A DNA stretch of 64,000 bases from Fibrobacter succinogenes. GTDB lineage: Bacteria > Fibrobacterota > Fibrobacteria > Fibrobacterales > Fibrobacteraceae. The stretch covers positions 1 to 64,000 of the forward strand of contig CACYRP010000005.1 of assembly GCA_902776765.1 (NCBI GenBank). Direction: 5' to 3'. Both the position numbers and the translations under genes were made by a program. Below are positions 3,798 to 46,031 of this stretch, piece by piece (the first letter of the stretch is position 1; every line of letters begins with the position of its first letter). The notes under the pieces are model-generated. The model was given only the letters and a program-made list of their open reading frames with translations, had not been told where the DNA came from and ran no database searches.

Positions 3798-3823
3798 AAA
3801 CACGAGCTCCGCTCGTGTTTTTT
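3798..3823. terminator. Hairpin terminator-like inverted repeat
   Basis: Perfect 10-bp arms (AAACACGAGC and GCTCGTGTTT) around a TCC loop. The longer T run follows on the plus strand, although both neighbouring genes are minus. It sits after the 3' end of the 3858-4565 gene and may stop readthrough toward the efflux genes. Confidence 0.5.
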
Positions 3824-3831
3824 CCTAAGCC

Positions 3832-3860
3832 CCTACAACCTATAACCTATTACCTACTTA
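3832..3860. repeat. Period-7 degenerate array (CCTATAA type)
   Basis: Units CCTACAA, CCTATAA, CCTATTA and CCTACTT are spaced 7 bp apart. The array runs into the stop codon of the 3858-4565 gene. On the gene's own strand it reads as repeated TAGG/GTAG after the TAA. Confidence 0.65.
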
Positions 3861-4565: not shown

Positions 4566-5998
4566 TAGAATCCCCAATTTGCACGAACAGTCCAACCGAA
4601 GGAATCCTTGAACGACATGCCACTATCGAAATGCAAGCGTTCATACCAAGAGACGTCTTCTTCGTAAAGGACTTTGTTATGGGCGTTAGCCGTAAGGGCT
4701 GCATCAACAGCAGAAACGATATGGTTCAAAATAAGTCCACCGATGAACCACACCTGCCTGTCGGCATAATCGTTGGCTTTGCTGCGCATGTCGCGATACT
4801 TGTTCAAGTGTTTGGATTCACCCAGCGGAACAACTTCAGCAGCATCGTCTTCGAGATTCAAATCGTTGATCAAAGTTCCACCATCCTTAACATCATCCCA
4901 ACCTCGCACATAAGAACCTTCTGAAATCAACTGGAACAACTCGGATTCTTTGGCGAAAGATCTTTTGAAATCTCTCATTTCATCACCAAGTTTTTTGTTT
5001 TTGTCATTAAACCTGTTGTAATGCTGTTCGCTACCAGCAAACAATTCATTTTCTTGATAGCATGCGGAAGCATCACCATAGATAGCTTCGCAGAACGACT
5101 TGCGAGTGTTCATATAGCGATTACGGAACGTCGAAGGATAGAGCGAACCACCGGCATTGTAGAGATCTCGCATAGCACGTTCATAACGACCAATCGAGAA
5201 GTGTTCCTTCGCAAACTTTTTGTACTTGTCAACCTGCTGATTATACTTGTAAATGGAGTTGTAACCCCAGCCACTCCACAAGAACACTTCCAATGCAATA
5301 TAGACTCCACCACGGACGTAAGTCGAGGTATTGCCACCCACATACATTTGGCCTGCACCCGGCACCAAGAGAGAAAGGAACAAAGCCTTGCGCGGATTCT
5401 TATAACGGCCCTTCATTTCGTCAATACCGTTAACCTTGGAAACCTTTACCGGTCCAAGCAATTCGCGACGGCTCATGCTGTTAGACGAAGCAGCAACAGA
5501 GCTGCTGCTCAAGTTCGTAAGGCCAGCGGCCTGTGCTTGTGCTAAAGAATCTGCCTTACGGGTAGAATCGGCAAGCGCACGGACCCTTTCGGCTTCGGCA
5601 ATAGCAGCTTCACGCATCAAGGAATCCCGTGTTGCAGAATCAAGAACCGCCGTATCGACCGTTGCTACAGCAGGAGCCACATCTACTGCCGACGACATGG
5701 CATCCGCAACAGAAGAGCTAGACACAAGCGGAGCAAGCGATGAGGAGCTCGCAGGTACAACCACCGCAACAGACGAAGAACTCATGACAACCGTAGCAGA
5801 GCTCGACAGCGTTACTGGAGCAGGCGTCTGGACCGCTGCGGAACTTGCAGGTGCAGCCGGAACAGGATTTTCCACAGCCGGAGCCGCAGGAACACCGACT
5901 TCTTTTTCAAATTCATCGAAGAGGTCTCGCACTTGAGCAAAGGAGACCTGGGCGAGAGATAAACCAAAAACCAAGGGTAAAAGAACAAACTTGCGCAT
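4565..5998 (-). CDS. Exported DUF5683-like protein with polyserine/alanine linker
   Basis: Function unknown. Signal peptide MRKFVLLPLVFGLSLAQVSFA is followed by a roughly 150-residue low-complexity linker of Ser, Ala, Pro and Val with repeated SSS runs, typical of Fibrobacter envelope proteins. The conserved part begins near residue 200 (KNPRKALFLSLLVPGAGQMY), the DUF5683-type motif, with a hydrophobic segment and a later one at VWFIGGLILNHIVSAVDAAL. The middle region is charged and Tyr-rich (YKKFAKEHFSIGRYERAMRDL), possibly a helical repeat. The C-terminus (SFGWTVRANWGF) ends on an aromatic residue like an outer-membrane strand. The stop overlaps the start of the shorter relative downstream. 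Confidence 0.75.
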   Translation of the reverse strand: MRKFVLLPLVFGLSLAQVSFAQVRDLFDEFEKEVGVPAAPAVENPVPAAPASSAAVQTPAPVTLSSSATVVMSSSSVAVVVPASSSSLAPLVSSSSVADAMSSAVDVAPAVATVDTAVLDSATRDSLMREAAIAEAERVRALADSTRKADSLAQAQAAGLTNLSSSSVAASSNSMSRRELLGPVKVSKVNGIDEMKGRYKNPRKALFLSLLVPGAGQMYVGGNTSTYVRGGVYIALEVFLWSGWGYNSIYKYNQQVDKYKKFAKEHFSIGRYERAMRDLYNAGGSLYPSTFRNRYMNTRKSFCEAIYGDASACYQENELFAGSEQHYNRFNDKNKKLGDEMRDFKRSFAKESELFQLISEGSYVRGWDDVKDGGTLINDLNLEDDAAEVVPLGESKHLNKYRDMRSKANDYADRQVWFIGGLILNHIVSAVDAALTANAHNKVLYEEDVSWYERLHFDSGMSFKDSFGWTVRANWGF

Positions 5999-6030
5999 GC
6001 CTCTAAAATAGCAAAAAATGTTGTCAAAAC

Positions 6031-6058
6031 AAAAAGCCCCAGACTCAAATCTGGGACT
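6031..6058 (-). terminator. Rho-independent terminator of the MBG-repeat gene
   Basis: On the minus strand, arms AGTCCCAGA and TCTGGGGCT (one wobble pair) around a short loop are followed by TTTTTGTTTTG. It lies directly after the 3' end of the 6085-8979 gene. Confidence 0.8.
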
Positions 6059-6084
6059 TTCTACAACAAAACTCTATAAAAAAG

Positions 6085-32700: not shown

Positions 32701-35700
32701 TCAGTTCACTCCGCCGCGAATCCAACCATACCCTTGCACAGCCATATCAATAAAATGGTTCAAGAGCAAATTGCTCTTAGCATTGAATAGGTCGATGTCG
32801 TAGCAGTCTGGCAGATGCGGAGGATCTATAGAATCAAGAACATCGTCAATGGTTTTCTTGACTTTAGCCCGAGTCTGTTCGTCCTTGAACCAATCCACCA
32901 CAAGAATTTTTTGACGATTGTCATGCAACTTGTGGAACAGAGCCTTAGAAGTTAGCAAGACTTCCTGTTCCTGCGCCTTCGTCAGCTTTTTTCCCATCAC
33001 GAGAAGGTCGAATATTTCGAGTTCTTCGTCACTCAGGCCCATTGTCGCCGAGCGAGAATCTTCCTTTTTCAATTCTTCAACGAGTTTTACCAGCTGCTCG
33101 TAGTAATCTTCATTCTCGGTGCCGCCCGCATTGTAGCGGTTGATAATGTTGCGGAACCGTTCCGAGAACTTGATGCGCGTGACATTGCGGTTTATCATTT
33201 GCCGTAAGGCCTTCTCGATAAACTCTTTCAAGTCGTTAATTTCGATGGCCTTGTATTTTGTCTGCTTGATTTCCTTACGCAATCCTTCAGCATCAATTTT
33301 AGAGAGGTCTATCAGTTTGGAGCCGCGCATGTACGACCCAGCTGCAGATACATCACGAATTTCGGTTGCGTCATCAATCTTCACGCTTTCCGACGAGACG
33401 CTACTATCCAGCAAATCGCCCATGCGTTTGCGGGCCTTTTCAATCTTTTCATCGTCAATAAGCCTGAAGAATAGTCCGTGCAAATAAACAAGCGGGCTGA
33501 ACTTTGGGTTGTTCCAGTTGCGTTCGAAAATTTCCGGCTTAGATGCTTCGTAAAGATTCATCAGCGTGTTCAGAATGACCTTGAACTTGTTGACATCCTC
33601 ATCAACAGAAATGATGGTGTCGTAAGCGTTGCGGAATTCATCCAGCTTATCGAATGTGGACGCTCCGTCCAGAATTTTCTCGATATTGATATTCCGTTCC
33701 AACAGGAATTTATCGGCTTCGTCAATGCAAGCGTCAATATAGCCGATCAATTCGTCAATGTCCTTGGCTGGGAATTCAGTGCCGTCATCGCCAATGGCGT
33801 ATGCGGCCAACGCCTGCTTCATAAACTTAAATACGTTCACGTAATCGACGATGATACCGCACGGTTTTCCCGGATACACACGGTTCGCCCTTGCGATGGC
33901 CTGCATCAGCGTGTGATTCTTCATCGGCTTGTCAAGGTAAAGCGTAGAAAGGTTCGGAACGTCGAAACCCGTTAGCCACATGGCGCATACAAAAACCAAT
34001 TGCAAGTTATCTTCGGGATCCTTGTAGCGGTCCTCGATATCTTTGCCCTCAGGCGTAATCTCGTTCATTTTCTTGCGATGAGCCGTAATGTCGAGCCCCT
34101 GCGCCTTGAACTTTTCGTTTTCATCCGCTTCTTCCGAGACAATGACCGCCATCTCTACTTTATCCATGTAGTTCAATATGGCGGTCAGGCGGTTGTAATC
34201 CTCACTATCCTTGACAACGTTATTCCGTTCGATGGTCAGCGCGGTCTTTTCTTTTTTCCAGTAATGCTGAACCTTGTCAAACATCTTTACTGCGGTGAAC
34301 TTGTCCACCGAAACGACCATACCCTTGCCGAGGAACCCACGACGTGGGAAATGATGTGCAATATCCCTAGCAATTTTATCCAGGCGGTCTTCGCGCTTGA
34401 TGACTTCTAAAATGCGGGAACTAGAATTTTCAAGCAGTCTGGCTTCGGCATCGTTCAGATTTTCATCTTCGATAATCGTCACGACATCGTCGTCGAGGAA
34501 GTTGTTTTGCAAACCCACTTCAGGAACGCGGCGGCTATAGAACAGCGGCACCGTCGAGCCGTCTTCCACAGACTGCGCGAAGTTGTATTCCGAAACATAG
34601 TCGCCAAACCACTGGTTCGTCAGGCGCTTGCTCCCCAATAGCGGCGTCCCCGTAAACGCAACGAAGTTCGCGTTCGGCAATGCTGTGCGCATATTTTCGG
34701 CAAGTGTCTTGTATTGCGTGCGGTGCGCCTCATCCACCAACACGAAAATATCATCGCGGGTAGAAAGGACAGGGTATTTTTTACCCTTGTCGTAACCGAA
34801 CTTATGAATCAGCGTGAATATAAAAGGCTTATTCCCTTGCAAGTATTCGCGAAGCTGTTCGCCGTTCTTGGGCTGGCATTCATCTTGCGGGCCGATGATT
34901 TCTGTCCGCAAGAAGTTCTTGTAAATTTGCGTATCAAGGTCTTCGCGGTCGGTGATAATAAGGAACGTGAAGTTGCCACTGAACTTGCGTTTGACTTTGC
35001 GGGCAAACATCGCCATCGAGTAGCTCTTACCGCTCCCTTGCGTATGCCAGAATACGCCCAACTTGCCGTCCAGTTCCTTACGATTCTCTACGGCGCGACA
35101 CAAGTTATTCACACCCATAAACTGGTGATTCTTGGCGATAATCTTTATGGACCCGTTCTGGAACAGGATGAAGTTTTCGATGTAGTCAATGAGCGTTGCC
35201 TTGTCGAGCAAACTCCTGACCATGTATTGCGCGCTTACGCCCTCGCCGCGGATATGCTTGCGGTCAATCTTGTCGTCTTCGCTTTTCTTGAGCCATTCGA
35301 AGAAGTAATCGTAGCTTGCGTTGAACGCACCCAGTTTGGTTTCAAAGCCGTTCGAAAGAACGCACACCTGGTTCAGGGCGAACAAGTTCGGGATTTCTTT
35401 CCGGTAATCCTGGAGGTTCTTGTTGTAAGCCTCTTCAATCTTGACGGTGCTGTTCTTCAGTTCGATAAAGACTAGCGGCAATCCGTTGACAAACACCAGA
35501 ACATCGGGGCGGCGAAAGTGATAGTGTCCCTGAATCCACATCTGCGAAACGGCAGTAAACGTGTTGTTCTCGGGGTTGGCAAAATCGATAAGCGACACAT
35601 CACCAAAATCCGGCTTGCCGTCCTTGACAAACGGAACGCGCACACCGTCGCGGATTTTCTTGTAGAGTGCGTAATTTGTCGCCGTCATGTCGGTGCCGGA

Positions 35701-35955
35701 ATAGTCGCGGACCAAATCCTGCGCAATTTCGTCTAGTTTGTTTGCGGGAATTTCGGGATTGAGCCTCGCGAGCGACTCGCGCAAAACAACAGGCAACACG
35801 CACTGCTTTTTGCTAGAACGCCCCGTGCCATCGGGCAACACATCCATCTTTTCCGGAGACGGGTCGCAACGGACCACATCGTAACCGAACTCCGGCGATT
35901 CCAGCATCTGGAGAATCGCCTGCTCGATATCGTCTTCGGAAATAAAGGACTTCAT
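32701..35955 (-). CDS. hsdR: Type I restriction enzyme, R (endonuclease/translocase) subunit
   Basis: DNA-translocating restriction subunit that works with HsdM and HsdS. Residues 1-250 form the nuclease domain with the D...ELK core in DVLVFVNGLPLVFIELKN (about residue 160). SF2 helicase motifs follow: motif I HTQGSGKSYSM (about 305), motif II VLVDEAHRTQ (about 407), motif III FVAFTGTPL, and motif VI-like MQAIARANRVYPG with GFDVPNLSTLYLDKPM before it. The C-terminal 250 residues are helical and bind the methyltransferase. Length 1,084 fits the family. Unusually it is separated from hsdM-hsdS by five genes and begins 9 nt after an AbiEii-type toxin gene, so it probably shares that gene's transcript. 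Confidence 0.95.
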   Translation of the reverse strand: MKSFISEDDIEQAILQMLESPEFGYDVVRCDPSPEKMDVLPDGTGRSSKKQCVLPVVLRESLARLNPEIPANKLDEIAQDLVRDYSGTDMTATNYALYKKIRDGVRVPFVKDGKPDFGDVSLIDFANPENNTFTAVSQMWIQGHYHFRRPDVLVFVNGLPLVFIELKNSTVKIEEAYNKNLQDYRKEIPNLFALNQVCVLSNGFETKLGAFNASYDYFFEWLKKSEDDKIDRKHIRGEGVSAQYMVRSLLDKATLIDYIENFILFQNGSIKIIAKNHQFMGVNNLCRAVENRKELDGKLGVFWHTQGSGKSYSMAMFARKVKRKFSGNFTFLIITDREDLDTQIYKNFLRTEIIGPQDECQPKNGEQLREYLQGNKPFIFTLIHKFGYDKGKKYPVLSTRDDIFVLVDEAHRTQYKTLAENMRTALPNANFVAFTGTPLLGSKRLTNQWFGDYVSEYNFAQSVEDGSTVPLFYSRRVPEVGLQNNFLDDDVVTIIEDENLNDAEARLLENSSSRILEVIKREDRLDKIARDIAHHFPRRGFLGKGMVVSVDKFTAVKMFDKVQHYWKKEKTALTIERNNVVKDSEDYNRLTAILNYMDKVEMAVIVSEEADENEKFKAQGLDITAHRKKMNEITPEGKDIEDRYKDPEDNLQLVFVCAMWLTGFDVPNLSTLYLDKPMKNHTLMQAIARANRVYPGKPCGIIVDYVNVFKFMKQALAAYAIGDDGTEFPAKDIDELIGYIDACIDEADKFLLERNINIEKILDGASTFDKLDEFRNAYDTIISVDEDVNKFKVILNTLMNLYEASKPEIFERNWNNPKFSPLVYLHGLFFRLIDDEKIEKARKRMGDLLDSSVSSESVKIDDATEIRDVSAAGSYMRGSKLIDLSKIDAEGLRKEIKQTKYKAIEINDLKEFIEKALRQMINRNVTRIKFSERFRNIINRYNAGGTENEDYYEQLVKLVEELKKEDSRSATMGLSDEELEIFDLLVMGKKLTKAQEQEVLLTSKALFHKLHDNRQKILVVDWFKDEQTRAKVKKTIDDVLDSIDPPHLPDCYDIDLFNAKSNLLLNHFIDMAVQGYGWIRGGVN

Positions 35956-35964
35956 GCCATAAAA

Positions 35965-37062
35965 TTAACTCTTTAGCAACTCAAAAGCACGAAACCAGTA
36001 ATAAAAAGCCTCAGGATTTGACTTTTTCAGCTTATTTAGCTTGGTCCATACAGCCAAATCCGAACCTACAGAAGCCTCGATTTTCACCTCTGCAAGATTT
36101 TTCGCATTGGCAGAAGTGTATTTTTCAGGAACAAAAAATCCTTTCAAAAGACATGCCGACAAATACGCAATCTTAGACGAATCAACAACCGCATTACTTA
36201 ATCCATAACGATTCCCATAAACAAAGCTCTGCAACTTAGGAATCCCATGATTCAATAACGAAAAACGTTCTTTATCAGAATATCCATTTGTTCCTATGCA
36301 CAAAGCCGTATTTATTGAATCCATCAGAACATCCTCAACACCAATTTTTAAGTTGCGATAATCCAACTCTACAGAAGCATTTTTCTTATAGACCTCAAAA
36401 ACATTTTCAAAATTATCTAGAGAATCAAACAAGCTAGCCACATCAAACAATTGCTTCATAATTTCCAAAGAACAGTCCCTATCGTTTCCAGCCTTGTCCT
36501 TTTTGAAATAGGGGATCCCGGTTGTATTCGGAGCAAACGCGGCAAGTTTATCGCCAAGGATATCGGATTTTGAGGGAACATTGACCCAAACGTTTTTACC
36601 TTCAGTTTTCAAAAAAGGACTCTGTACAGCCTTATTCTCAACTTGTTTATAAGGAGAATCTTCCAAAAGAACATCGAGCAACACATAATCGCTCCGACTC
36701 CCATTATAAGCGACTTGGTAATTATACTTTGCGTGCATCTTAGGAACATTGAATCTCGATTTTCTATTAACAAGCTCCGGCTTTTCAAACCCGTAATCCC
36801 GGGCATACACGTCTATAAACCTTTCAACATCTGTACCCGGAGCACAAATAATATCAATATCAACCGACAGACGCTTCTCAGTATTGAAATGCAGCATCAA
36901 ACACGAACCGCCCTTGAAAACAAACGGACAACCGCTACGAGCCAACGCCTCAAGTAAAGAAAACGCACGGATAGTCTTTTCAAGTAACGCTACATCAGAA
37001 ATCCGATACTTCTTTGATACAAACGCTATCCAATCCCTCGTCCTACTTTCTGGAGAAATCAT
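35965..37062 (-). CDS. AbiEii/AbiGii-type nucleotidyltransferase (toxin-like)
   Basis: DUF1814-family nucleotidyltransferase, the toxin half of AbiE abortive-infection systems. The NTase core is clear: PFVFKGGSCLMLHFNTEKRLSVDIDIIC holds the GGS motif and the D-x-D metal pair. PSKSDILGDKLAAFAPNTTG is the motif III/IV region with the conserved Lys/Asp, and DCSLEIMKQLFDVASLFDS follows. At 365 residues it is longer than the second copy at 43752. GAGGTG precedes the ATG. It lies between an AbiEi-like gene (88 bp upstream) and hsdR (9 bp downstream). Confidence 0.88.
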   Translation of the reverse strand: MISPESRTRDWIAFVSKKYRISDVALLEKTIRAFSLLEALARSGCPFVFKGGSCLMLHFNTEKRLSVDIDIICAPGTDVERFIDVYARDYGFEKPELVNRKSRFNVPKMHAKYNYQVAYNGSRSDYVLLDVLLEDSPYKQVENKAVQSPFLKTEGKNVWVNVPSKSDILGDKLAAFAPNTTGIPYFKKDKAGNDRDCSLEIMKQLFDVASLFDSLDNFENVFEVYKKNASVELDYRNLKIGVEDVLMDSINTALCIGTNGYSDKERFSLLNHGIPKLQSFVYGNRYGLSNAVVDSSKIAYLSACLLKGFFVPEKYTSANAKNLAEVKIEASVGSDLAVWTKLNKLKKSNPEAFYYWFRAFELLKS

Positions 37063-37150
37063 TTACGCACCTCTTTTTACAATCATATGATATATACATA
37101 ATGATTTCTCCCAGCGCAATAGGTGCAACTGTTAGCCACAAAGGGTGGGA

Positions 37151-37873
37151 TTAAGCGATGTCCGCAAGCAGAGATTCAACCTCTTTCAGCTTATTTCTTC
37201 TGCCTGCGTAACGTTTTAAAGCCTTCACATTTATATCGTATAAATCAAAAGCTTTCTGATACACATAAACAGTTTCCATACCGCGAAGAAAATAGAATTC
37301 ATTATCGCAGAGAATATCAACGAGAATTTTTTCGAGCCTCGGTGCATCGAGCTTATCCGTTTTATTTAAAGGACTCTGGCTGACTAGGTTTTTAACGACA
37401 ATAATTTTTTTTGACGAGGAAAAATATTCCATTGTCTCTAGCGACGGATTCTTTAGGACAATCCTTTTTTCAGGTTCATTAAGCCGATCTGCAACAGCAT
37501 CGACCACATCCTTTTCGGCTTCAACAATTACGAAATTCACTGTCGGAACATGTTGCGTAAAATAAGCGAGTTCCTTTACATTCCAAGCACACAATTGAGC
37601 GAAAGGAAAGTTCTGCTTTAAAAACGAATACAGTTTTTTTTCAGCAAGAGAGGATTCTGTTCGAAAAACATTCTTTTGTGATTCGGCAATTTCGTACACA
37701 TCATCACCCACCTTTACCAATTGCTTTTTAGCAACCATTTTCTGGATGGCGTTATGCACCGACATCAGCGAATACTCAACTTTTGAATTGAACAAAGAAA
37801 CAAGAAGTTCCTCTAAATGGAATTTCCTATTGTTTTTCAGTGCAAAATCCTTAATGTCCAAATCAACGTTCAT
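37151..37873 (-). CDS. AbiEi-like antitoxin/regulator (DUF6577-like)
   Basis: Probable partner of the adjacent nucleotidyltransferase. The start is ATG 37871-37873 (MNVDLDIKDFALKNNRKFHL); a TTG 6 nt upstream is less likely. The N-terminal 75 residues look like a winged helix (LEELLVSLFNSKVEYSLMSVHNAIQKMVAKKQLVKVGDDVYEI). A mixed alpha/beta C-terminal domain (FIVEAEKDVVDAVADRL, then KIIVVKNLVSQSPL) ends in a basic helical tail (VKALKRYAGRRNKLKEVE). AbiEi proteins are repressors of their own operon. Two matching inverted repeats lie just upstream, which fits that role. The assignment rests on position and fold, not a strong motif. Confidence 0.7.
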   Translation of the reverse strand: MNVDLDIKDFALKNNRKFHLEELLVSLFNSKVEYSLMSVHNAIQKMVAKKQLVKVGDDVYEIAESQKNVFRTESSLAEKKLYSFLKQNFPFAQLCAWNVKELAYFTQHVPTVNFVIVEAEKDVVDAVADRLNEPEKRIVLKNPSLETMEYFSSSKKIIVVKNLVSQSPLNKTDKLDAPRLEKILVDILCDNEFYFLRGMETVYVYQKAFDLYDINVKALKRYAGRRNKLKEVESLLADIA

Positions 37874-37897
37874 AACCAATATAAATATAGTTCGTAT

Positions 37898-37922
37898 TTG
37901 TCAAAAAATCAAGTAATTTGAC
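37898..37922 (-). promoter_or_regulatory. Inverted repeat ahead of AbiEi-like gene (site 1)
   Basis: TTGTCAAA (37898-37905), 11-bp spacer, then TTTGAC (37917-37922). It lies 25 bp before the start codon and shares both arms and spacer length with site 2. Confidence 0.55.
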
Positions 37923-38029
37923 GTTTTAAACATATTTTTATACATTTAAAATTGCTTATTTTTGCAAATATACGGTCATTTTCAATTAAAAAGTGACAAA
38001 AATGCAAAACACTATTATGAAAATATTTT

Positions 38030-38056
38030 TTGTCAAAAATTTGTTAAATTTGACAA
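38030..38056 (-). promoter_or_regulatory. Inverted repeat ahead of AbiEi-like gene (site 2)
   Basis: Perfect 8-bp arms TTGTCAAA and TTTGACAA with an 11-bp spacer, between the last AbiTii gene and the AbiEi-like gene. A GTGACAAAAATG half-site lies between the two sites (near 37992). As RNA this repeat could also end the upstream transcript, but it lacks a good U run. Confidence 0.55.
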
Positions 38057-38085
38057 CACACAAAAAATACATCTAAACACATAAT

Positions 38086-38964
38086 TCATCCCAAAATTGA
38101 GGCGATTTGGGCGATTATCCCTGCAGCAACCACGTTCCCAGTGATGTTTTGGCAGATGCTGTCAATCTTATGCAAGACCTTCCGTATACTAGATTCATCT
38201 TTTTGTGCAATCATGTCCTTAATTCCGGAAATGTCGGAACTTAACCCATTTTCTTGAACTTCCGGCAAATGAAGAGCTTTGATATTCTGTGAAATTTGGT
38301 CTATTAAATCGGTAACTTTTGCAAAATCAAGACCATTATTTATTGTAGCGGAAGAGTTTGTCATGTTTCCAATAAAGTTATTTCCGTTAGAAGGGGCATT
38401 AAAGACGTTTGTTATTGATATATTTTGAGCTTTGTTCAACTCGCTATTTGTAAATTCAAGATTTTCTCCCCAGATTCCATCTTCGCCTAATTTCAGAGCC
38501 CATTCCAAAAGAATATTTTTTACTCTAAAAATAATTCCTTCCAACTGGTAAGCTGAAATATTTTTCCTTCCATCAGAGATATAATTATGAGGAAAAATCT
38601 CTTGCATGATTTTTATCTGTTCCGTTGTTAATTTAACATGAAACCATTTTCCACTCTCGGAACAAATAACTTCTAATTCCTTAATCGGTTGAGAAACAGT
38701 ATGCTCTGCCAAATAAGTATTATTAGGTAATGATACAGAATGCCATCTATATCCATTACATAATTCTAAATCAATGTGAATAACCCGATAAATAGGAATA
38801 TTTTCAGAATTTTCTTGATAACCATCTAGTTCATTTTTACAAAAATCAACCATTTCAGCAATGTTTAACTTACGCGCAATTGCGTACGCCTTTAGAAGCA
38901 ACTGACTACAAGGTATAGAATGATTTAGGCAGTCATTTTGTAAATCAAGAACACTTTTGCTCAT
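38086..38964 (-). CDS. AbiTii-domain protein, copy 1
   Basis: AbiTii is one half of the lactococcal AbiT phage-abortive system; its mechanism is not known. The N-terminal signature is clear: VLDLQNDCLNHSIPCSQLLLKAYAIARKLNIAEMVDFCKNELDGY. A beta-rich middle has LYRVIHIDLELCNGYRW-like strands, then ILLEWALKLGEDGIWGENLEF. A short Asn/Gly/Ser motif (ITNVFNAPSNGNNFIGNMTNSSATINN, about residues 187-213) links to a C-terminal helical domain that ends in a hydrophobic helix (GNVVAAGIIAQIASIL). AT-rich. AGGA precedes the ATG. Last of three tandem paralogues, 28 bp after copy 2. Confidence 0.85.
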   Translation of the reverse strand: MSKSVLDLQNDCLNHSIPCSQLLLKAYAIARKLNIAEMVDFCKNELDGYQENSENIPIYRVIHIDLELCNGYRWHSVSLPNNTYLAEHTVSQPIKELEVICSESGKWFHVKLTTEQIKIMQEIFPHNYISDGRKNISAYQLEGIIFRVKNILLEWALKLGEDGIWGENLEFTNSELNKAQNISITNVFNAPSNGNNFIGNMTNSSATINNGLDFAKVTDLIDQISQNIKALHLPEVQENGLSSDISGIKDMIAQKDESSIRKVLHKIDSICQNITGNVVAAGIIAQIASILG

Positions 38965-38992
38965 TATAATCCTATAGATATTTTTTTGAATA

Positions 38993-39877
38993 TTACAATG
39001 AAGAAAGATAACTCGTTATAGTCGTTCCAATAGACCAAAATCCAGAAGAAACAGCACCCATTGCGATATTTTTTAACGTTTCAATAACAGAACTTTCATC
39101 TCGATTTCCGATAGACCGTTCCAATAGTTCTACCTTTTCTTTCAAAGCAACAACCTTTTCAGAATCGGCAGTTTGCGCTTTTTCTAGTTCTTTCTTGACT
39201 TGATCAACAATCTTTTTTAAAGAATCAAAATCTATTTTGCCATTGTTATTAACAGTAGCAGATGAATTCGTCATTTTTCCAACTACATTTGCACCGTTGA
39301 CATTTCCATTGATAATAATAGTCATCGTTTTAGCAATTTCCTTTTCTTTTTCTGAAAAAATGTAATCTTCTCCAAGAATACCCTTTCGCTCTAAATCAAT
39401 AGACCAATCCAAAATCTGATTTTTTACAGCGTCAAGAATCCTTACCAATTGAGTTTTTGAGAAAAAAGCCTTGATCTCAGTATCAAAAAACATATTTGAA
39501 TTTTTTATAAGTTCTCGTTGTAATTCAAATGGGACCACGGTATTTAATACAGAGTCTTCTACATCAAGAAATTTCTGCATTTCCCCAACAGATAAAAATA
39601 TTGGTCCCTTCAGCAATTTGGAATATATTCCTGTCGAAGGAATTTGAAAAGGAATCCAACCTCGCATAGGATTAAAGGCTTTATATGTCAAATCAACATA
39701 ACGAATATCGGGAAGTTCATCAATGTTTTTATAGCCATTTATTTCATTCTTCAGAAAATCAACCATCTCTTTTTGCTCAAGTTTTTGAGCAATGAAATAT
39801 GCTTTCTGAAAAAGATTCGCATAGGACAAAGCTGGATTTAAACATTCCTTCTGTAATTCTATAACCAGTTTAGCCAT
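38993..39877 (-). CDS. AbiTii-domain protein, copy 2
   Basis: Same layout as copy 1: VIELQKECLNPALSYANLFQKAYFIAQKLEQKEMVDFLKNEINGY at the N-terminus, then ILDWSIDLERKGILGEDYIF. The linker IIINGNVNGANVVGKMTNSSATVNN follows, and then a longer helical region with heptad-like charge (FDSLKKIVDQVKKELEKAQ, VVALKEKVELLERSIGNRDE). A Gly/Ser-rich hydrophobic end (MGAVSSGFWSIGTTITSYLSSL) could insert in a membrane or pack as an oligomer helix. The start lies 3 bp after the stop of copy 3, so expression is tightly coupled. Confidence 0.85.
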   Translation of the reverse strand: MAKLVIELQKECLNPALSYANLFQKAYFIAQKLEQKEMVDFLKNEINGYKNIDELPDIRYVDLTYKAFNPMRGWIPFQIPSTGIYSKLLKGPIFLSVGEMQKFLDVEDSVLNTVVPFELQRELIKNSNMFFDTEIKAFFSKTQLVRILDAVKNQILDWSIDLERKGILGEDYIFSEKEKEIAKTMTIIINGNVNGANVVGKMTNSSATVNNNGKIDFDSLKKIVDQVKKELEKAQTADSEKVVALKEKVELLERSIGNRDESSVIETLKNIAMGAVSSGFWSIGTTITSYLSSL

Positions 39878-39880
39878 AAA

Positions 39881-40531
39881 CTATCCCTGTGTTTGGATAT
39901 TTGAAATAGAGTCTTTGAGTTCACCGGCTATATTTGAATTAGAAACATTTCCGTTAATGATGATTTGAATAGAAGGGATGTTTTTTACTCGATTTTGTTC
40001 GTCGCTGGAAAAGGTAAGGTTTTCGCCTAAAATGCCTTCTTTTTCCAATTTCAAAGCCCAATCTAGAACAAGTTTACGGACTAAGTGAAGAATCGATGTA
40101 ACTTGTCCTGCCATAAAAATTTGGCGAACAGGCAGAGGCTTGGGCATGTCAATAATTTGGTAAATAGCCACTTGTTCATCGTAATTCAGCCGAATATGCA
40201 ACATTTTTTCTTTGGATTCTTCTATTTTTTCAATTTCTGCAATAGATCCAACAACAGAGTGCATAGACCAAGGATTTCCCGCAGGAAACGATACAGGTTC
40301 CCATCGTTTAGAAGATTCTTTATAGGCTTCTGTATTTACAGGAATACGTCGATATGAGGGTATAAGCGATCTTTCAACTCCTGCATAACCATTTATTTCT
40401 CTAGTACAGAAATCCGCCATATCTGTGATGGACAGTTTCGAGGCTATGGCGTAAGCTTTCAGAAGCAGATAGTAGCAAGAAATCTTATCGTCTAAACATG
40501 CTTGCTGTAAGTCAAGAACCATTTTTGCCAT
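39881..40531 (-). CDS. AbiTii-domain protein, copy 3 (lacks C-terminal helical domain)
   Basis: The N-terminal domain matches copies 1 and 2: VLDLQQACLDDKISCYYLLLKAYAIASKLSITDMADFCTREINGY, then LVLDWALKLEKEGILGENLTF. The Asn/Gly linker is present (IIINGNVSNSNIAGELKDSI) but the protein stops right after it at residue 216, so the helical C-terminal domain seen in the other two is absent. It reads as a clean stop followed 3 bp later by copy 2, not as a broken frame. It may act as a regulator or subunit of the longer copies. It follows hsdS by 8 bp. Confidence 0.85.
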   Translation of the reverse strand: MAKMVLDLQQACLDDKISCYYLLLKAYAIASKLSITDMADFCTREINGYAGVERSLIPSYRRIPVNTEAYKESSKRWEPVSFPAGNPWSMHSVVGSIAEIEKIEESKEKMLHIRLNYDEQVAIYQIIDMPKPLPVRQIFMAGQVTSILHLVRKLVLDWALKLEKEGILGENLTFSSDEQNRVKNIPSIQIIINGNVSNSNIAGELKDSISNIQTQG

Positions 40532-40539
40532 AAAATTAC

Positions 40540-41748
40540 CTATACCGCGAGTTTGCCGTTCATGAGGCGGGGCAAGAGCAGGTCGCGCTGTTTGATATTG
40601 TTCTTGTTCTGTTTGGTTAGCAAATAAATTTCTTCGAAAATCGGTTTTGCAATAGAATCAAATCGCTTTATAATCTCATTTGATGGCTTGGCAATTTTCA
40701 TTGATTTTATTTTGGGGACATTTACTCTTTGGCGGCCATCCGCTCCATTCATACTTAAAATAGCCGTTTGCCTAAAATACTGAGATCTAGCAAAACAGTA
40801 AACATAATATGGGGATAATTCTTTTGACCGTAATACAATAAATTCGGTTGATCCTGTTGCTGTTTCGCCATCATCTAAACACTGAACAAAGCCTGTTTTA
40901 CCATTTTCTAGGCAAGGCGTAATACGAGCAACAAGTGTATCGCCATTTTGAGAATGAGACCCACTAGGATTGTCAACTAGCTGAATGCAATTTTCATCCA
41001 CAATCATAGAATCCGTTGATAAAGCTTCCATGGGAATGCTCTTTACCTGGATACCCTTTTTTACCGGAAGTAATGGATCTACATCAATAAGATCACTTAA
41101 GCGTTTTTCGCTCCATCCCCTGGGGATTCCGTTTTCGAGCGAGGTGGTTTCGTGGCCGGGGAAGCGGAAGCGAGCAAACCATTCTTTGTAAAGGTTCTCC
41201 GCCATCTGTTCCAAAATTTTGATTCGCTTGTTGTTGTTTTCTATCAGGTTGTCGTAAGCGGAGAGAATGGAAACAACTTTATCCTGAATATCTCTTTTCG
41301 GAATAAAAAGCTTGTAATTCTTTAGGATATCAATTGTCAGGGCTGCTTGAGAAGACCCAATACACCTATTAACAAGAGAATCTTTCCCAAATTTTGATGA
41401 AATCCAATAATACAAATACTTAGATGACAGTTCCTTGGAAAAATTTCTCATCCAAGTTAAATTACCGTCTTTAAAATAGAATTGTTCATCTTTTACAATA
41501 TATGGGATACCAACTGTTCCGACAGAAGTTAATAGCAAGTCCCCCTTTTGGGGAACTCCGAACTTTTTCTTTATGGTTTCATAAACTTCAGGTTCAATAT
41601 AAAGAGGCTCAGATATTTCTTGCCCATTATTTTTTTCAATAATTTCCTTTGACCTGTAAAAAGGAACTCCCTTTTCAACGTATTGTTCTGCAAAGATTCT
41701 CTTGCTAGATGTTATTGAGCAATAATTACCTAGAGTTACATATTCCAT
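40540..41748 (-). CDS. hsdS: Type I restriction enzyme, S (specificity) subunit
   Basis: DNA-sequence recognition subunit for the methyltransferase and restriction complex. The start is ATG 41746-41748 (MEYVTLGNYCSITSSKRIFA). Two target-recognition domains are seen. The first includes KKFGVPQKGDLLLTSVGTVG, the second SHSQNGDTLVARITPCLENG. Each is followed by a conserved helix pair (FIPKRDIQDKVVSILSAYDNLIENNNKRIKILEQMAENLYKEWFARFRF in the centre, and SNEIIKRFDSIAKPIFEEIYLL near the end). Length is about 402 residues, normal. AT-rich second-domain codons contrast with hsdM. The three AbiTii genes follow closely in the same transcript. Confidence 0.93.
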   Translation of the reverse strand: MEYVTLGNYCSITSSKRIFAEQYVEKGVPFYRSKEIIEKNNGQEISEPLYIEPEVYETIKKKFGVPQKGDLLLTSVGTVGIPYIVKDEQFYFKDGNLTWMRNFSKELSSKYLYYWISSKFGKDSLVNRCIGSSQAALTIDILKNYKLFIPKRDIQDKVVSILSAYDNLIENNNKRIKILEQMAENLYKEWFARFRFPGHETTSLENGIPRGWSEKRLSDLIDVDPLLPVKKGIQVKSIPMEALSTDSMIVDENCIQLVDNPSGSHSQNGDTLVARITPCLENGKTGFVQCLDDGETATGSTEFIVLRSKELSPYYVYCFARSQYFRQTAILSMNGADGRQRVNVPKIKSMKIAKPSNEIIKRFDSIAKPIFEEIYLLTKQNKNNIKQRDLLLPRLMNGKLAV

Positions 41749-41758
41749 AATCAAGTCT

Positions 41759-41825
41759 CTCTGGATCCTTCGACTTCGCTCGGGATGACACTTCCTATTG
41801 TCTACCGTTTACTTCCTACTATTTA
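41759..41825. repeat. Dispersed repeat plus period-7 array between hsdS and hsdM
   Basis: TGGATCCTTCGACTTCGCTC and GGGATGAC (41761-41789) are followed by CTTCCTA, TTGTCTA, CCGTTTA, CTTCCTA, CTATTTA at 7-bp spacing, which run into the hsdM stop codon. A housekeeping-type intergenic repeat thus lies inside the restriction operon. Confidence 0.65.
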
Positions 41826-43561
41826 AACAATCCCTTCAAATTCTCAGCTATTTCCTTTTCCAACTTCTTCGCTTCGGCGCTTAGTTTCGTGAAGTCGTCG
41901 TTCAGCCCAAGCATGGTCTGCTTGAATTCTTCTTCGGTCATGCCGTCATCTTCAATCACCACGCCCACGTAGCGGCCGGCGTTCAGCGAGTAATCCTGGT
42001 CCTTGATTCCGTCTTCGCCATCGATTTTTGCGACCTTGCAGAGTCCGATTACGTCCTGGTATTTGCCGTCGGGGAACCGTTCGGTGAGCCAGTCGATTTG
42101 CGCCTGCCAGTAATCCTTGGTTTTGACTTCCTTGTCGTCGCTGCTTGCGGGCGCGTTCTTGAGACTTTCCTTGTATTCCTTGAGCAAGTCCTTGAACGAC
42201 TGCGTATCGCCTTCGTAGAGTCGGCTGATGACGGCGAGGTTCTTTATCTGCTCGTCGCTAAACTTGCGGTGCGCCCTGTCCACCTGCGTAAACACGTTGC
42301 GCGCGTCAATGAAAAGGATTTCGTCTTTCTTTTTGCTGTTTGCCTTTTGCTTGTCGAAGAACCAGAGCGTTGCCGGGAGCGTCACCGAGTTGAACATATT
42401 CGAGGGCAGCGTCACCATCTGGCTGATGATTCCTTCTTCGACCATTTTTTTGCGGATTTCGTATTCGCTCTTGCCTGCATCGCTTGCGGAATTCGCCATG
42501 ACGAGTGCCGCCTTGCCGTTTTCGTTCAGCGCGGTCGCAAAATAGCCAATCCAAAGGTAGTTTGCGTTAGGCACAGTTTCCTTTTTGTCGGAGCCCTTCT
42601 TTGCGGACTTTGTCGCGTTGCGCGGCACGCCGTATGTGCTGAAGCGTTCGTCTTTCTGGACTTTTTCGACAACGACTTCATCGACGTTGAACGGCGGGTT
42701 TGCCATCACGTAATCGAATTGCCCCACTGCATTGTAGGGGTCGCTGTAGAAGGAGTTCGCCTCGGTGATTTCGCCACGCACGTTGTTCAAGAGCAGGTTC
42801 ATCTTCGCGAGCTTTACGGTGTCGGGTTCTTTTTCTACGCCGTAGCAGCGGAAATTCATCGCCGTGTCGTTTTCGGCGCTGGCATTGTGGCGGTGCATGT
42901 AGCGGGCCGCCTGCACGAACATACCGCCCGAACCGCAAGCGGGGTCCAGGAATTTCTTGTTGATGCCGTGGGGCTGCAACACGTTCACCATGTAGCGCAC
43001 GACTGTTGCGGGCGTATAGAATGTTCCGCCGTCCTTGCCTTCGGCCAATGCAAAGTTGCCCAAGAAATATTCGTAGATTTCACCGAACAGATCGATGCTG
43101 ATATCTTCGGGAATGTCCTTGAACACACGCACGATTTTCGAGAGCAGTTCCGGTTCTTCTTCGGGAACAAGCTGTGCATAGACATCCTTGGGGAGAACGC
43201 CTTCCATCTTTTCGTTTTCTTCTTCGATGGCCTTCATCGCCTTCTTTACAAGGGTTGCCTTCTTGGCATCGTCCGGAGCGTCGTTGATGGTGTCGAAGTA
43301 GGCACATTCCGGCAGGTAGAAACCGCACTTTTCGATGGAAATATCTTTCAGGGTGCGGGCACGGCGCGTGCCCTTGAGCTTTTCGAACTCGGCGTTGATT
43401 TCGTCCTTGTGCTGCTTGTACAAAATGTCGGCATAGCGCAAAAAGATGAGGCCCAAAATCGGCTGCCCGTACTTGTTTGCGGCAAGGTGCGCACCCGCGC
43501 GGAGCATGTCGGCAGAATGCCAAAGGCGGTCTTTCAAGTTCTTAAGTTCAACGTCGGTCAT
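41819..43561 (-). CDS. hsdM: Type I restriction-modification, M (DNA adenine methyltransferase) subunit
   Basis: SAM-dependent N6-adenine methyltransferase subunit. The N-terminal helical domain starts MTDVELKNLKDRLWHSADMLR and includes GQPILGLIFLRYADILY. The SAM motif I is KKFLDPACGSGGMFVQA (about residue 205) and the catalytic motif IV is FDYVMANPPFNVDEV (about residue 286). GTFYTPATVVRYMV lies before motif I as usual. The C-terminal coiled region (FTKLSAEAKKLEKEIAENLKGL) contacts HsdS and HsdR. At 580 residues it is in range. GC-rich and host-like in codon use, unlike the AT-rich Abi genes downstream. AGGAG precedes the ATG. A long open frame on the other strand is only its shadow. Confidence 0.96.
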   Translation of the reverse strand: MTDVELKNLKDRLWHSADMLRAGAHLAANKYGQPILGLIFLRYADILYKQHKDEINAEFEKLKGTRRARTLKDISIEKCGFYLPECAYFDTINDAPDDAKKATLVKKAMKAIEEENEKMEGVLPKDVYAQLVPEEEPELLSKIVRVFKDIPEDISIDLFGEIYEYFLGNFALAEGKDGGTFYTPATVVRYMVNVLQPHGINKKFLDPACGSGGMFVQAARYMHRHNASAENDTAMNFRCYGVEKEPDTVKLAKMNLLLNNVRGEITEANSFYSDPYNAVGQFDYVMANPPFNVDEVVVEKVQKDERFSTYGVPRNATKSAKKGSDKKETVPNANYLWIGYFATALNENGKAALVMANSASDAGKSEYEIRKKMVEEGIISQMVTLPSNMFNSVTLPATLWFFDKQKANSKKKDEILFIDARNVFTQVDRAHRKFSDEQIKNLAVISRLYEGDTQSFKDLLKEYKESLKNAPASSDDKEVKTKDYWQAQIDWLTERFPDGKYQDVIGLCKVAKIDGEDGIKDQDYSLNAGRYVGVVIEDDGMTEEEFKQTMLGLNDDFTKLSAEAKKLEKEIAENLKGLFK

Positions 43562-43690: not shown

Positions 43691-43738
43691 TTTCAACGAA
43701 ATACGGAAAATGTTTAGATATTCCGAAATTCGTTGAAA
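43691..43738. promoter_or_regulatory. Large inverted repeat between hsdM and the second AbiE pair
   Basis: Arms of 18 bp (TTTCAACGAAATACGGAA and TTCCGAAATTCGTTGAAA, 16 of 18 paired) flank a 12-bp spacer. It lies 130 bp upstream of hsdM and 14 bp after the AbiEii stop. It has no U run, so it is more likely a protein-binding or recombination site than a terminator. The remaining DNA here includes a dispersed CCTCGCAATGACG-type repeat (43607-43642). Confidence 0.55.
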
Positions 43739-43751: not shown

Positions 43752-44612
43752 TTACTTATCCATCGCAACTACATATCGTGATAATTGTTCTTTGATAAAT
43801 TTCCAAACCGAGTCAAATTCAAGACTGTCTTTATAATGTATTTTCCCCAGAAATCCTTTCCAAAGGAGGTTCATTCTTTCGTTGTTTCCAAAATCAGAGG
43901 CAAAGAAAACACTATCCGAATTCACGATTGTATTCCTATTCCGAAAGGTCTTTTGAATCGCTTGTGTCAAGCAATCTTGATCAAAAGTATAATTCATCAG
44001 AATGTTGTAAACATCGAAAAAATCTTTCATTCTTGAATTCTGTTCAGCAAGCTCCACCATACTCTGAAACTTTTCGGCAATAACAGTTTCTAGCGGATAC
44101 GTAAAGAGCGTGGCTGACGGGGAGTCTTTCAAAATGCAGGGAAACGGTAATAACTGAGGAGCTGGGAAAATAATATCTCCGAACCCGAAATCCACGGTAA
44201 TATGCTGACGAATAGAATCTAGATATGCCTTAAAACGAACCCGCACACCATGATATTCTTTAATTTCTGCGATTGACTCAGCCATAACTGAATTCACATC
44301 AAAAATGGCTCCGTCTTCGGCACATTCAATTTGGCATATTTCAGTAACGGCATCACTAATATCTTGCATATTGTTGGAAATTCTATTCGCACTAAAATCC
44401 ATGTCCAAAGTAGGCCTTGCCATGAATTTTTCATAGGCGAATAGCAAAGTTCCGCCTTTCAAGCAAAAGTTGTTTTTGTAGGAGCTTTGTGCAAGTCTGT
44501 ACAAAAAACGCTCGTGAAAATAACGTGTAAGAATCACTTGAAAATCCACGCCAATTTTCTTCGATGTGTTATGCAGTTTTTCACGAACAGAATGAGCGAT
44601 GTTTTTAGCCAT
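43752..44612 (-). CDS. AbiEii-type nucleotidyltransferase toxin, second copy
   Basis: Toxin half of a second AbiE-type module. The start is ATG 44610-44612 (MAKNIAHSVREKLHNTSKKI), one base after the stop of the AbiEi gene. Motifs are FCLKGGTLLFAYEKFMARPTLDMDFSA (GG-T/S and D-x-D), VDFGFGDIIFP, PLETVIAEKFQSMVELAEQNSRMKDFFDVYNIL (the conserved K and K-DxxD segment). At 286 residues it is the usual AbiEii length. Sequence is clearly different from the copy at 35965, so the two are not a recent duplication. Confidence 0.92.
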   Translation of the reverse strand: MAKNIAHSVREKLHNTSKKIGVDFQVILTRYFHERFLYRLAQSSYKNNFCLKGGTLLFAYEKFMARPTLDMDFSANRISNNMQDISDAVTEICQIECAEDGAIFDVNSVMAESIAEIKEYHGVRVRFKAYLDSIRQHITVDFGFGDIIFPAPQLLPFPCILKDSPSATLFTYPLETVIAEKFQSMVELAEQNSRMKDFFDVYNILMNYTFDQDCLTQAIQKTFRNRNTIVNSDSVFFASDFGNNERMNLLWKGFLGKIHYKDSLEFDSVWKFIKEQLSRYVVAMDK

Positions 44613-44613
44613 G

Positions 44614-45174
44614 TCATACTCCCATTGCCAGGTACATTTCAAGCGTCTTTGCAACTCTCAGAATTTTTGCGTACTTCATGAGCTTCTCGATATTCCTATC
44701 GTGACGCTTAAGGTAGTTCTTTATTATTTCTGTGCAGACATCAATGCCAATCTTGTTGCGGAATTTCACAGCATCGCAAACACATTTTTCGATGTCAAAA
44801 ATTTTGACTTTGTAGCCAGAAATGGTTTCCGTGATAACACCTATGTTCAGAGCGTTGTCAGACAGGTTATGGAGTTTAAAGTTTGGATACTGAGGCACAA
44901 CAACTTTGCGTCCCCTTTTTATGGCAATATCATACTGCTGCGGAACCTGTGTCGTGAGTTCATAATGTTCCCATGCCGAAAACATACAGAGAATTCCACC
45001 GGGAATTAGAGATTCAACATCGACCATTACATCTGCGAGAGCAATCTCTTCTGCATAAACACCGCGTTTAACACGAACCAGTTCCCCCTGCTTCGCCTTT
45101 TGGAGAGTGGCGTAATATTTCGCTCGCCCCTGCTCGCAAACCTTGCCCGCTGTTATAAATTTCTTTCTGAACAT
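44614..45174 (-). CDS. AbiEi-type antitoxin, winged-helix repressor
   Basis: Antitoxin and autorepressor of the type IV-like AbiE system. The start is ATG 45172-45174 (MFRKKFITAGKVCEQGRAKY); the frame is open to 45255 but the operator/promoter lies there. The N-terminal winged helix (ITAGKVCEQGRAKYYATLQKAKQGELVRVKRGVYA) matches the AbiEi pattern. The C-terminal part has CMFSAWEHYELTTQVPQQYDIAIKRGRKVVVP, FDIEKCVCDAVKFRNKIGIDVCTEIIKNYLKR and a last helix. Toxin gene follows after one base. A 9-bp inverted repeat lies over its -10 region. Confidence 0.88.
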   Translation of the reverse strand: MFRKKFITAGKVCEQGRAKYYATLQKAKQGELVRVKRGVYAEEIALADVMVDVESLIPGGILCMFSAWEHYELTTQVPQQYDIAIKRGRKVVVPQYPNFKLHNLSDNALNIGVITETISGYKVKIFDIEKCVCDAVKFRNKIGIDVCTEIIKNYLKRHDRNIEKLMKYAKILRVAKTLEMYLAMGV

Positions 45175-45184
45175 CTGTATTAAC

Positions 45185-45212
45185 CTACTACAAATATACA
45201 TAATTGTAGTAG
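45185..45212 (-). promoter_or_regulatory. AbiEi operator: inverted repeat over the promoter
   Basis: Perfect 9-bp arms CTACTACAA (45185-45193) and TTGTAGTAG (45204-45212) with a 10-bp spacer. On the minus strand the repeat covers TATATT (45193-45198), a good -10 about 20 bp before the start codon. AbiEi proteins are known to bind inverted repeats in their own promoter. Confidence 0.75.
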
Positions 45213-46031
45213 CTTTATACATTGAAAAGTGACTTATGGGGAAATATCCTACCATTTTATACCTGCCTGAGCCAAATAGAAGTTCACGCGATAAAATCTA
45301 TACCCGCCTTTTTTGACGGTCAAGGCGTCGGACTTCGGGTGAATTTTGCGTTAGGGATAGTGACCACGGTGAGCCAAAAGCGACTCGTATCAACGAGTCG
45401 TGTTGGCGAGAGTGAGGCGTAAGCCGAACGGTCGTTCTGTGGCGGAGCAAGGCTCCGTCGCAAGAGTTGCGCGGGGGTACCGTAGGTGCGCACGGGCGGC
45501 CTTGCGATATAGCCCGACCTTGCCCATGGGCAAGGGAACGCCCAAAAGGCAAGACTTAACTGGATTGGACTAAAGTCCCAACTTTGGGGCTCAGCAAGAA
45601 TATACAAATGCATTCGGAACTGTATGGATGGGGCAAAGCCCCTCCCAATTGGCTCAGTCATATCCATACGAGTATGGCTGCGACGTTCGCCTTAAAGGGA
45701 GTCTCCTAACGGAGGATGACGCGGTCGAACTTTACTGGATTCTTCGCTTCGCTCAGAATGACGAGAAGCACGCACGCCCGTGTTTTACTACATGGCACCC
45801 CATTGGGGTGCATGTCGTGCGACTCGGCTATAAAAATGAGCAAGCTCATTTTTGCAGCACTCGTCTTTGGCACACTTCGTGTGCCTTTTTTTTAGACTCA
45901 AAAATGGTCCTGCAAGCAGTCCCGCTTCACTCGTCATACGAAAAAGTTCCTACATTTTCCATCAGTAACATTCTCTACCGGGATCGCCATCCCGATGGAT
46001 TAACTCTCAACAAATGAGGAACAAACAAAAA
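45213..46031. repeat. Gene-free, repeat-rich boundary of the defence island
   Basis: No gene is seen in about 820 bp. In order it holds the following. A CGACTCG / CGAGTCG hairpin repeat (45368-45419) matches the one at 12903. AACTGGATTGGACTAAAG (45557 on) has its relative at 19564. A GGCTCAG hairpin element lies at 45649-45692. A CTTCGCTTCGCTCAGAATGAC element lies at 45734-45762. Hairpins occur at 45832-45853 (AAAAATGAGC / GCTCATTTTT) and 45869-45893. Short open frames across it run through these repeats and are not believed. Confidence 0.65.
45869..45893 (+). terminator. Terminator-like hairpin with T8
   Basis: GGCACAC / GTGTGCC with a TTC loop, followed by eight T on the plus strand. No plus-strand gene ends nearby, so it may insulate the downstream polyamine genes. 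Confidence 0.65.

What the first reader, a model, noticed from the sequence alone, without database searches (positions are those of the whole stretch)
32701..43561. Type I restriction-modification locus split by five abortive-infection genes
hsdM and hsdS are followed by three AbiTii-domain genes, an AbiEi-like gene, an AbiEii nucleotidyltransferase and only then hsdR, all on one strand with mostly tiny gaps (8, 3, 28, 212, 88, 9 bp). Type I loci often carry one passenger gene; five passengers of two different abortive-infection classes suggest a layered defence where failure of restriction triggers cell shutdown. AbiTii and AbiE families are known separately; their ordered combination here is the inference.
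Basis: partly seen in the sequence, partly recalled or inferred. Interest (0 to 1): 0.85.

Follow-up and report, generated by a model that had tools for sequence, protein, structure and literature searches.

The report
Restriction locus with swappable Abi cargo
In Fibrobacter bacteria a DNA-cutting defence locus contains an exchangeable gap, here filled with three AbiTii genes and an AbiE-type gene pair that likely stop cell growth when phages get past the cutter, and relatives of these AbiTii proteins have swapped their front and rear parts.

Summary
In detail: hsdM, hsdS, three AbiTii genes, an AbiEi-like gene, AbiEii and hsdR lie on one strand with the stated gaps. The order is not fixed. 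Nine Fibrobacter genomes carry this core (HsdM 89-99%, HsdR 85-99% identical); the order recurs in one other (G095), with a different third AbiTii, and seven carry other cargo. The hsdS-hsdR gap is a cargo slot ending at the hsdR start codon. Defence genes at this position are already published. What stands out is AbiTii: in 167 Fibrobacterota genomes all 19 detected copies sit in this one slot, a tail-less gene first and a tailed one second in 7 of 7 loci, whereas in 14 loci outside the phylum AbiTii is not inside an hsd operon. AbiTii fronts and tails are shuffled at a conserved hinge predicted to be disordered. Likely mechanism: restriction first, separate growth-arrest modules behind it. 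Triggering by failed restriction is untested.

The parts
41819..43561 (-). hsdM, type I methyltransferase
   Evidence: Pfam N6_Mtase 253.1 bits, HsdM_N; orthologues 89-99% identical in 8 other genomes
40540..41754 (-). hsdS, specificity subunit (TTG start)
   Evidence: Pfam Methylase_S; PADLOC Specificity_I E=3.9e-103 over residues 9-404
35956..40539 (-). cargo slot between hsdS and hsdR
   Evidence: similarity between loci stops at the last bases of hsdS and resumes at the hsdR ATG (G001/G016)
39881..40531 (-). AbiTii-A, 216 aa, no tail
   Evidence: Pfam AbiTii 105.9 bits; first AbiTii gene and tail-less in 7 of 7 loci
39884..39964 (-). hinge motif at the C-terminus of AbiTii-A (about residues 190-216)
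   Evidence: pLDDT under 50 at 193-216; 61-76% mean pairwise identity in the last three blocks
38993..39877 (-). AbiTii-B, 294 aa, tailed
   Evidence: Pfam AbiTii 123.3 bits; residues 184-292 match PADLOC AbiTi E=1.1e-10
39236..39316 (-). hinge of AbiTii-B (about residues 188-214), place of front/tail exchange
   Evidence: pLDDT under 50 at 190-212; change of relatedness at the hinge in G079/G081/G083
38996..39235 (-). C-terminal helical tail of AbiTii-B (about residues 215-294)
   Evidence: four predicted helices; PADLOC AbiTi match
38086..38964 (-). AbiTii-C, 292 aa, tailed
   Evidence: Pfam AbiTii 108.6 bits; PADLOC AbiTi E=4.1e-9 at 184-290; replaced by a different AbiTii in G095
37151..37879 (-). 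AbiEi-like gene (DUF6577), predicted antitoxin
   Evidence: Pfam DUF6577 184.8 bits; PADLOC AbiEi E=3e-59
35965..37062 (-). AbiEii nucleotidyltransferase, predicted toxin
   Evidence: Pfam AbiEii 61.9 bits; PADLOC AbiEii E=9.2e-121; GG-x15-DID read from the sequence
32701..35955 (-). hsdR, restriction subunit
   Evidence: Pfam HSDR_N, SWI2_SNF2; NCBIfam TIGR00348 480.6 bits
43752..44654 (-). second AbiEii, upstream of hsdM
   Evidence: Pfam AbiEii 156.7 bits
44614..45255 (-). second AbiEi, upstream of hsdM
   Evidence: PADLOC AbiEi E=2.5e-53

Best explanation
[quoted passage not shown] Shown by comparison: the core is conserved while hsdS and the cargo change; the slot ends at the hsdR start codon; in the genomes searched of this phylum AbiTii occurs only here, with a tail-less gene (A) followed by a tailed gene (B); AbiTii fronts and tails are shuffled at the hinge. 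Inferred: HsdMSR cuts unmethylated phage DNA first. When a phage survives, the variable N-terminal domain of AbiTii would detect a phage or infection signal, A and B would assemble through their shared hinge motif, and the tail of B would arrest the cell, with A as restraint or nucleator. The AbiEi-like protein is predicted to silence the AbiEii nucleotidyltransferase until infection. One transcript may serve hsdS, A and B; the AbiE pair, behind a 206-212 bp gap, may have its own promoter.
For: Nine orthologous cores with different cargo; slot edges. 19 of 19 AbiTii copies in 167 genomes lie in this slot. A-then-B order with gaps of 8-14 and 0-3 bp in 7 of 7 loci. Purifying selection with allele replacement: third-base agreement 83-86% in the core but 50-55% in A and B for G000/G001. 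Front/tail mosaics: 23 and 34 of 3,916 pairs against 0 and 1 in the control split; G079/G081/G083. Modules also occur apart: AbiTii away from hsd operons in 14 loci, AbiEii outside this slot in 6 of 9 genomes, two cores without AbiTii. Hinge-plus-tail matches the AbiTi profile, and one AbiTi inhibited E. coli growth (PMC3985639 passage).
Against: No expression, toxicity or phage data. In the same paper L. lactis AbiTi and AbiTii were not toxic in E. coli, and AbiTii did not neutralise the toxic C. catus AbiTi, which speaks against a plain antitoxin role for A. In A-type NTD relatives a tailed form exists (P0078, P0079), so tail-less A is not universal. All seven Fibrobacter AbiTii loci may descend from one acquisition, so exclusivity is one event at least. 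The AbiTii domain has no recognised solved relative, so 'sensor' is a guess. Hinge conservation is weaker in B-type proteins (50-62% in the hinge blocks).
Confidence: 0.5

Rival explanations
1. Guard model like PrrC with EcoprrI: the assembled restriction enzyme holds AbiTii and/or AbiE proteins inactive, and anti-restriction proteins or failed restriction release them.
For: All AbiTii copies found in the phylum sit in one restriction core, directly after hsdS. PrrC is a precedent, and HEPN genes in restriction loci were proposed to work so (passages of PMC3710099).
Against: AbiTii occurs away from hsd operons in 14 loci; the AbiEii kind occurs outside the slot in 6 of 9 genomes; TgvAB, also embedded, needs no HsdR activity; cores keep HsdM and HsdR while AbiTii is replaced by very divergent alleles.
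Confidence: 0.2
2. The Abi genes mainly stabilise the locus: they are addiction modules that penalise loss of the restriction genes, and any phage defence is secondary.
For: AbiE is a type IV toxin-antitoxin system (PMC3985639 passages); the core carries predicted toxins of changing kind (AbiEii, DUF3990, Ntox50 family); the core with AbiTii is found at different chromosomal sites.
Against: The slot exchanges its content often, which addiction should resist; G016 and G079 carry no recognised toxin-antitoxin pair there (partial annotation).
Confidence: 0.2
3. AbiTii proteins are accessory subunits of the restriction enzyme, for example shielding it from anti-restriction proteins or modulating translocation.
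For: Exclusive linkage to this core in the phylum and fixed position right after hsdS.
Against: Two cores lack AbiTii; AbiTii exists elsewhere away from hsd operons; alleles are far more divergent than the HsdM and HsdR they would bind.
Confidence: 0.1

Closest known systems
DarTG2 between hsdS and hsdR in enteropathogenic E. coli (PMC12255303; abstract and passages seen)
   Same: A toxin-antitoxin pair embedded between hsdS and hsdR of a type I locus; the authors call that site a potential recombination hotspot.
   Different: One pair with a dedicated repressor; here AbiTii and AbiE genes, and the AbiTii proteins themselves are mosaics.
TgvAB in the type I locus of Vibrio cholerae VPI-2 (PMC11411939; abstract and passages seen)
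   Same: Two defence genes inside an hsd operon, complementary to restriction.
   Different: A type IV restriction pair acting on modified DNA; protection independent of HsdR activity.
PrrC with EcoprrI (described in passages of PMC3710099)
   Same: A growth-stopping gene inside an hsd locus as second line of defence.
   Different: PrrC is held inactive by the restriction enzyme; here no such control is shown.
AbiT of Lactococcus (AbiTi + AbiTii; PMC3985639 passages)
   Same: AbiTii domain; hinge and tail match the AbiTi profile.
   Different: There two separate genes; here AbiTi-like tails are fused behind AbiTii domains in B and C, and A stays tail-less.
AbiE type IV toxin-antitoxin (PMC3985639 passages)
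   Same: Adjacent AbiEi and AbiEii genes in that order, nucleotidyltransferase motif GG-x15-DhD (read).
   Different: The inner pair uses the DUF6577 kind of AbiEi; toxicity untested.

Membership tests
Type I restriction-modification | hsdM, hsdS and hsdR families present in one locus | tested here: met
   Pfam, PADLOC and NCBIfam matches
Type I restriction-modification | Site-specific methylation and restriction activity | not testable with these tools
   Needs methylome and plasmid or phage restriction assays
AbiTii domain family (PF18864) | Domain match over the curated cut-off | tested here: met
   105.9, 123.3 and 108.6 bits against 27.6
AbiT two-gene system | Separate abiTi and abiTii genes | tested here: not met
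   AbiTi-like sequence is found only as the C-terminal part of AbiTii-B and -C; no separate AbiTi match among the ten proteins scanned
AbiE type IV toxin-antitoxin | AbiEii nucleotidyltransferase with motifs I and II next to an AbiEi-like gene | tested here: met
   Families; GG-x15-DID (inner) and GG-x15-DMD (upstream) read, spacing as in PMC3985639
AbiE type IV toxin-antitoxin | Motif IV, +DxxD | tested here: inconclusive
   By eye: KDFFD in the upstream AbiEii; in the inner AbiEii the likely place reads KQLFD; no alignment was made
AbiE type IV toxin-antitoxin | Toxicity of AbiEii neutralised by AbiEi | not testable with these tools
   Needs expression tests
Type I loci with embedded defence cargo | Defence genes between hsdS and hsdR | tested here: met
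   same position as in PMC12255303 and PMC11411939
PrrC-type guard system | Effector held inactive by the restriction enzyme | not testable with these tools
   Needs binding and release assays
Amyloid-signalling effector | Hinge matches a known amyloid signalling motif | not tested
   No motif model was run; only peptides printed in PMC8086366 were seen

The most novel reading that the evidence does not exclude
AbiTii proteins are combinatorial two-part immune proteins: interchangeable N-terminal sensors joined to interchangeable C-terminal killing tails through a conserved, disordered, prion-like assembly hinge. The tail-less first gene nucleates or restrains the tailed second gene, and a type I restriction locus is the recombination platform that spreads and re-assorts the parts.
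Probability: 0.33. Interest if true: 0.75.

Novelty: new variant of a known kind. Interest (0 to 1): 0.55.

Why it matters
The papers seen here give AbiTii no settled mode of action. Natural front/tail mosaics in one genus say where the protein divides into parts and which part to test as sensor and which as effector. The locus also gives closely related restriction cores with different cargo, which makes the open question whether embedded Abi genes depend on the restriction enzyme directly testable.

Tried and rejected
Fixed five-gene combination: rejected; 2 of 9 cores have the order, with different third AbiTii genes.

AbiTii tied to one hsdS specificity: rejected; G000 and G095 share AbiTii-A at 98% with different hsdS, and G001 and G016 share hsdM-hsdS at 96% nucleotide identity with different cargo.

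Known amyloid signalling motif: a lead only (PMC8086366, passages and one section). No motif model was run; the prion-like reading rests on composition, conservation and predicted disorder.

Promoters and terminators: 38 promoter-like sites against 25.1 +/- 5.3 in shuffles and 17 terminator-like against 13.3 +/- 4.4; not used as evidence. The AT-rich gap before the AbiEi-like gene gives many weak inverted repeats; not interpreted.

Viral copies: a scan of viral contigs with AbiTii-B gave 51 pattern matches, none a relative. Literature: 'AbiTii' is in 2 held papers. Searches on hsd loci with embedded Abi or AbiE genes, DUF3990/DUF3791/DUF6577, AbiT and Fibrobacter defence (passages of PMC11834463; passages of PMC11514479) showed no description of this arrangement in the listings or passages seen; only an open-access library is held, so this is no proof of absence.

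The genome-collection scan used strict patterns and gave 5 loci, so gene order in other phyla is poorly sampled. In one search four cargo comparisons printed 'dS0' (A G000/G081, A G083/G001, B G000/G001, E G000/G031), which by the script means synonymous change beyond the formula; they were dropped. Two of the three B values and one of the two AbiEi-like values rest on dS above 1.5 and are rough.
Full report
What is there. Ten genes on the minus strand run from 45255 down to 32701: AbiEi, AbiEii, hsdM, hsdS, three AbiTii genes, an AbiEi-like DUF6577 gene, AbiEii and hsdR. Gaps from hsdS onward are 8, 3, 28, 206 (212 from the second possible start), 88 and 9 bp.

The slot. Searches of 80 genomes of the genus with HsdR and HsdM found matches at E of 1e-50 or below in 32 and 29 of them; nine (the window's genome included) hold orthologous cores, HsdM 89-99% and HsdR 85-99% identical. 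In one search the G083 HsdR match is split into pieces of 89% and 82%; G016 hsdR is cut by the contig end; G101 hsdM and hsdR match in two pieces each. Between hsdS and hsdR these carry: G000 A-B-C, AbiEi-like, AbiEii; G095 A-B-C', AbiEi-like, AbiEii; G001 and G101 A-B-C', DUF3791, DUF3990 and a 78-aa gene; G083 A-B-C' and an Ntox50-family protein; G081 A-B, a reverse frame and a 99% identical Ntox50-family protein; G079 A-B and two opposite-strand genes, one a YobI-like ATPase; G031 AbiEi-like and AbiEii without AbiTii; G016 a DUF6236 protein and others without AbiTii. G001 and G016 are 96% identical from before hsdM to the last bases of hsdS and align again from one base before the hsdR ATG. 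G000 and G095 match on both outer flanks, so they share a chromosomal site, yet AbiTii-C is exchanged. Ten further type I loci of the genus, picked because hsdM and hsdR matches lay about 8-12 kb apart, also have several kilobases of other genes between hsdS and hsdR; other loci (for example in G089, G094 and G005) have room for no cargo. Cargo here is therefore common in the genus but not the rule, and DarTG2 and TgvAB are published at such places.

AbiTii within this slot. A Pfam AbiTii search of 167 Fibrobacterota genomes (89 of them near-complete) hit 7, with 19 copies; by coordinates every copy lies between hsdM and hsdR of this core. In 7 of 7 the first gene (A, 213-218 aa) has no tail and starts 8-14 bp after hsdS, and the second (B, 294-300 aa) has a tail and starts 0-3 bp after A. 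Outside the phylum I looked at 12 of 108 matching plasmid records and 3 contigs of other phyla. A profile found AbiTii in 14 of these 15 loci; 13 had one copy and one Aeromonas plasmid two; none lay inside an hsd operon in the stretch held, and two had an hsdM-like gene within it. The seven Fibrobacter loci may go back to one acquisition.

Alleles are replaced. For G000 and G001, third bases of conserved codons agree at 86% (hsdM) and 83% (hsdR) but at 55% (A) and 50% (B). Selection is purifying: dN/dS 0.06-0.10 for A, 0.23-0.24 for B, 0.14-0.15 for the AbiEi-like gene, 0.09 for AbiEii, 0.16 for C', against 0.02-0.06 for hsdM and hsdR (four saturated comparisons dropped).

Parts are shuffled. 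AbiTii-B models as an N-terminal alpha/beta domain, a hinge at 190-212 with pLDDT under 50, and a helical tail (mean pLDDT 82.0, pTM 0.60). AbiTii-A models as the same kind of domain ending in the hinge (84.2, 0.80). In 36 A-type proteins the last three blocks (from residue 191) show 76, 65 and 61% mean pairwise identity against 34-56% over residues 51-150; in 49 B-type proteins the hinge blocks show 50-62% against 27-56% over that centre. Among 57 tailed proteins, 12 N-terminal clusters meet 7 tail clusters; 5 N-terminal clusters occur with more than one tail type, and one tail type occurs with 7 N-terminal clusters. Among 89 full-length proteins of the 147 found, 23 of 3,916 pairs share the front (85% or more) but not the tail (35% or less), and 34 share the tail but not the front, involving 31 proteins; a control split within the front gave 0 and 1. 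Many of the 23 pairs share one protein, P0024, so pairs are not independent. In assembled genomes G079 B follows G081 B in front and G083 B in the tail (90-100% per window), with the change at the hinge. The window's AbiTii-C also looks mosaic: its front is 59% identical to A of G101, and its tail resembles C of G083.

Mechanism. Shown: gene content, slot, exclusivity in the genomes searched, order A then B, selection, shuffling. Inferred: restriction acts first; AbiTii senses with its variable front, assembles by the hinge and acts by the tail, because hinge and tail match the AbiTi profile and an AbiTi of C. catus inhibited E. coli growth (PMC3985639 passage). Against this, L. lactis AbiTi and AbiTii were not toxic there and AbiTii did not neutralise the toxic AbiTi. 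The AbiE pairs are predicted type IV toxin-antitoxin modules. Independence of the layers is favoured because each module occurs without the others: AbiTii away from hsd operons, AbiEii of the inner kind outside this slot in 6 of 9 genomes, one of them (G119) directly upstream of another hsdR-like and hsdM-like pair, and cores without AbiTii. Whether any layer is triggered by failed restriction is unknown.

Verdict. Loci of this general kind are known; the exclusive, paired and shuffled AbiTii set is a new variant worth testing.

Noticed in passing
window 43752-45255: A second AbiEi-AbiEii pair directly upstream of hsdM, of a different kind from the inner pair; not found upstream of hsdM in G095 at the same chromosomal site.
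   Followed up: partly
L068 (G031), upstream of hsdM: Two AbiEi-like frames (88% and 34% identical to the window's upstream AbiEi) with no AbiEii match at E of 1e-6 or below: antitoxin-like genes without a recognised toxin.
   Followed up: no
L125 (G119), 331-8947: DUF6577 and AbiEii directly upstream of hsdR-like and hsdM-like genes in another family of the phylum, gap about 20 bp.
   Followed up: partly
L071 and L072 (G081, G083): A 161-aa cargo protein between the AbiTii genes and hsdR matches Ntox50, bacterial toxin 50.
   Followed up: partly
L105, L112, L114: Next to hsdS lie opposite-strand frames that look like extra hsdS halves and a possible recombinase, perhaps a phase-variable specificity system (by eye, no family search).
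   Followed up: no
L074 (G101): hsdM and hsdR match in two pieces each and C' is interrupted, so this copy may be decaying or misassembled.
   Followed up: no
protein P0044: One protein on a 1.6-kb contig joins part of an AbiTii front to a DUF3990 match; possibly a deletion or assembly chimera, yet both genes are neighbours in G001 and G101.
   Followed up: no
window 43691-43738: A 21-bp inverted repeat (86% complementary, 6-bp loop) between the upstream AbiEii and hsdM; possible operator or terminator.
   Followed up: no
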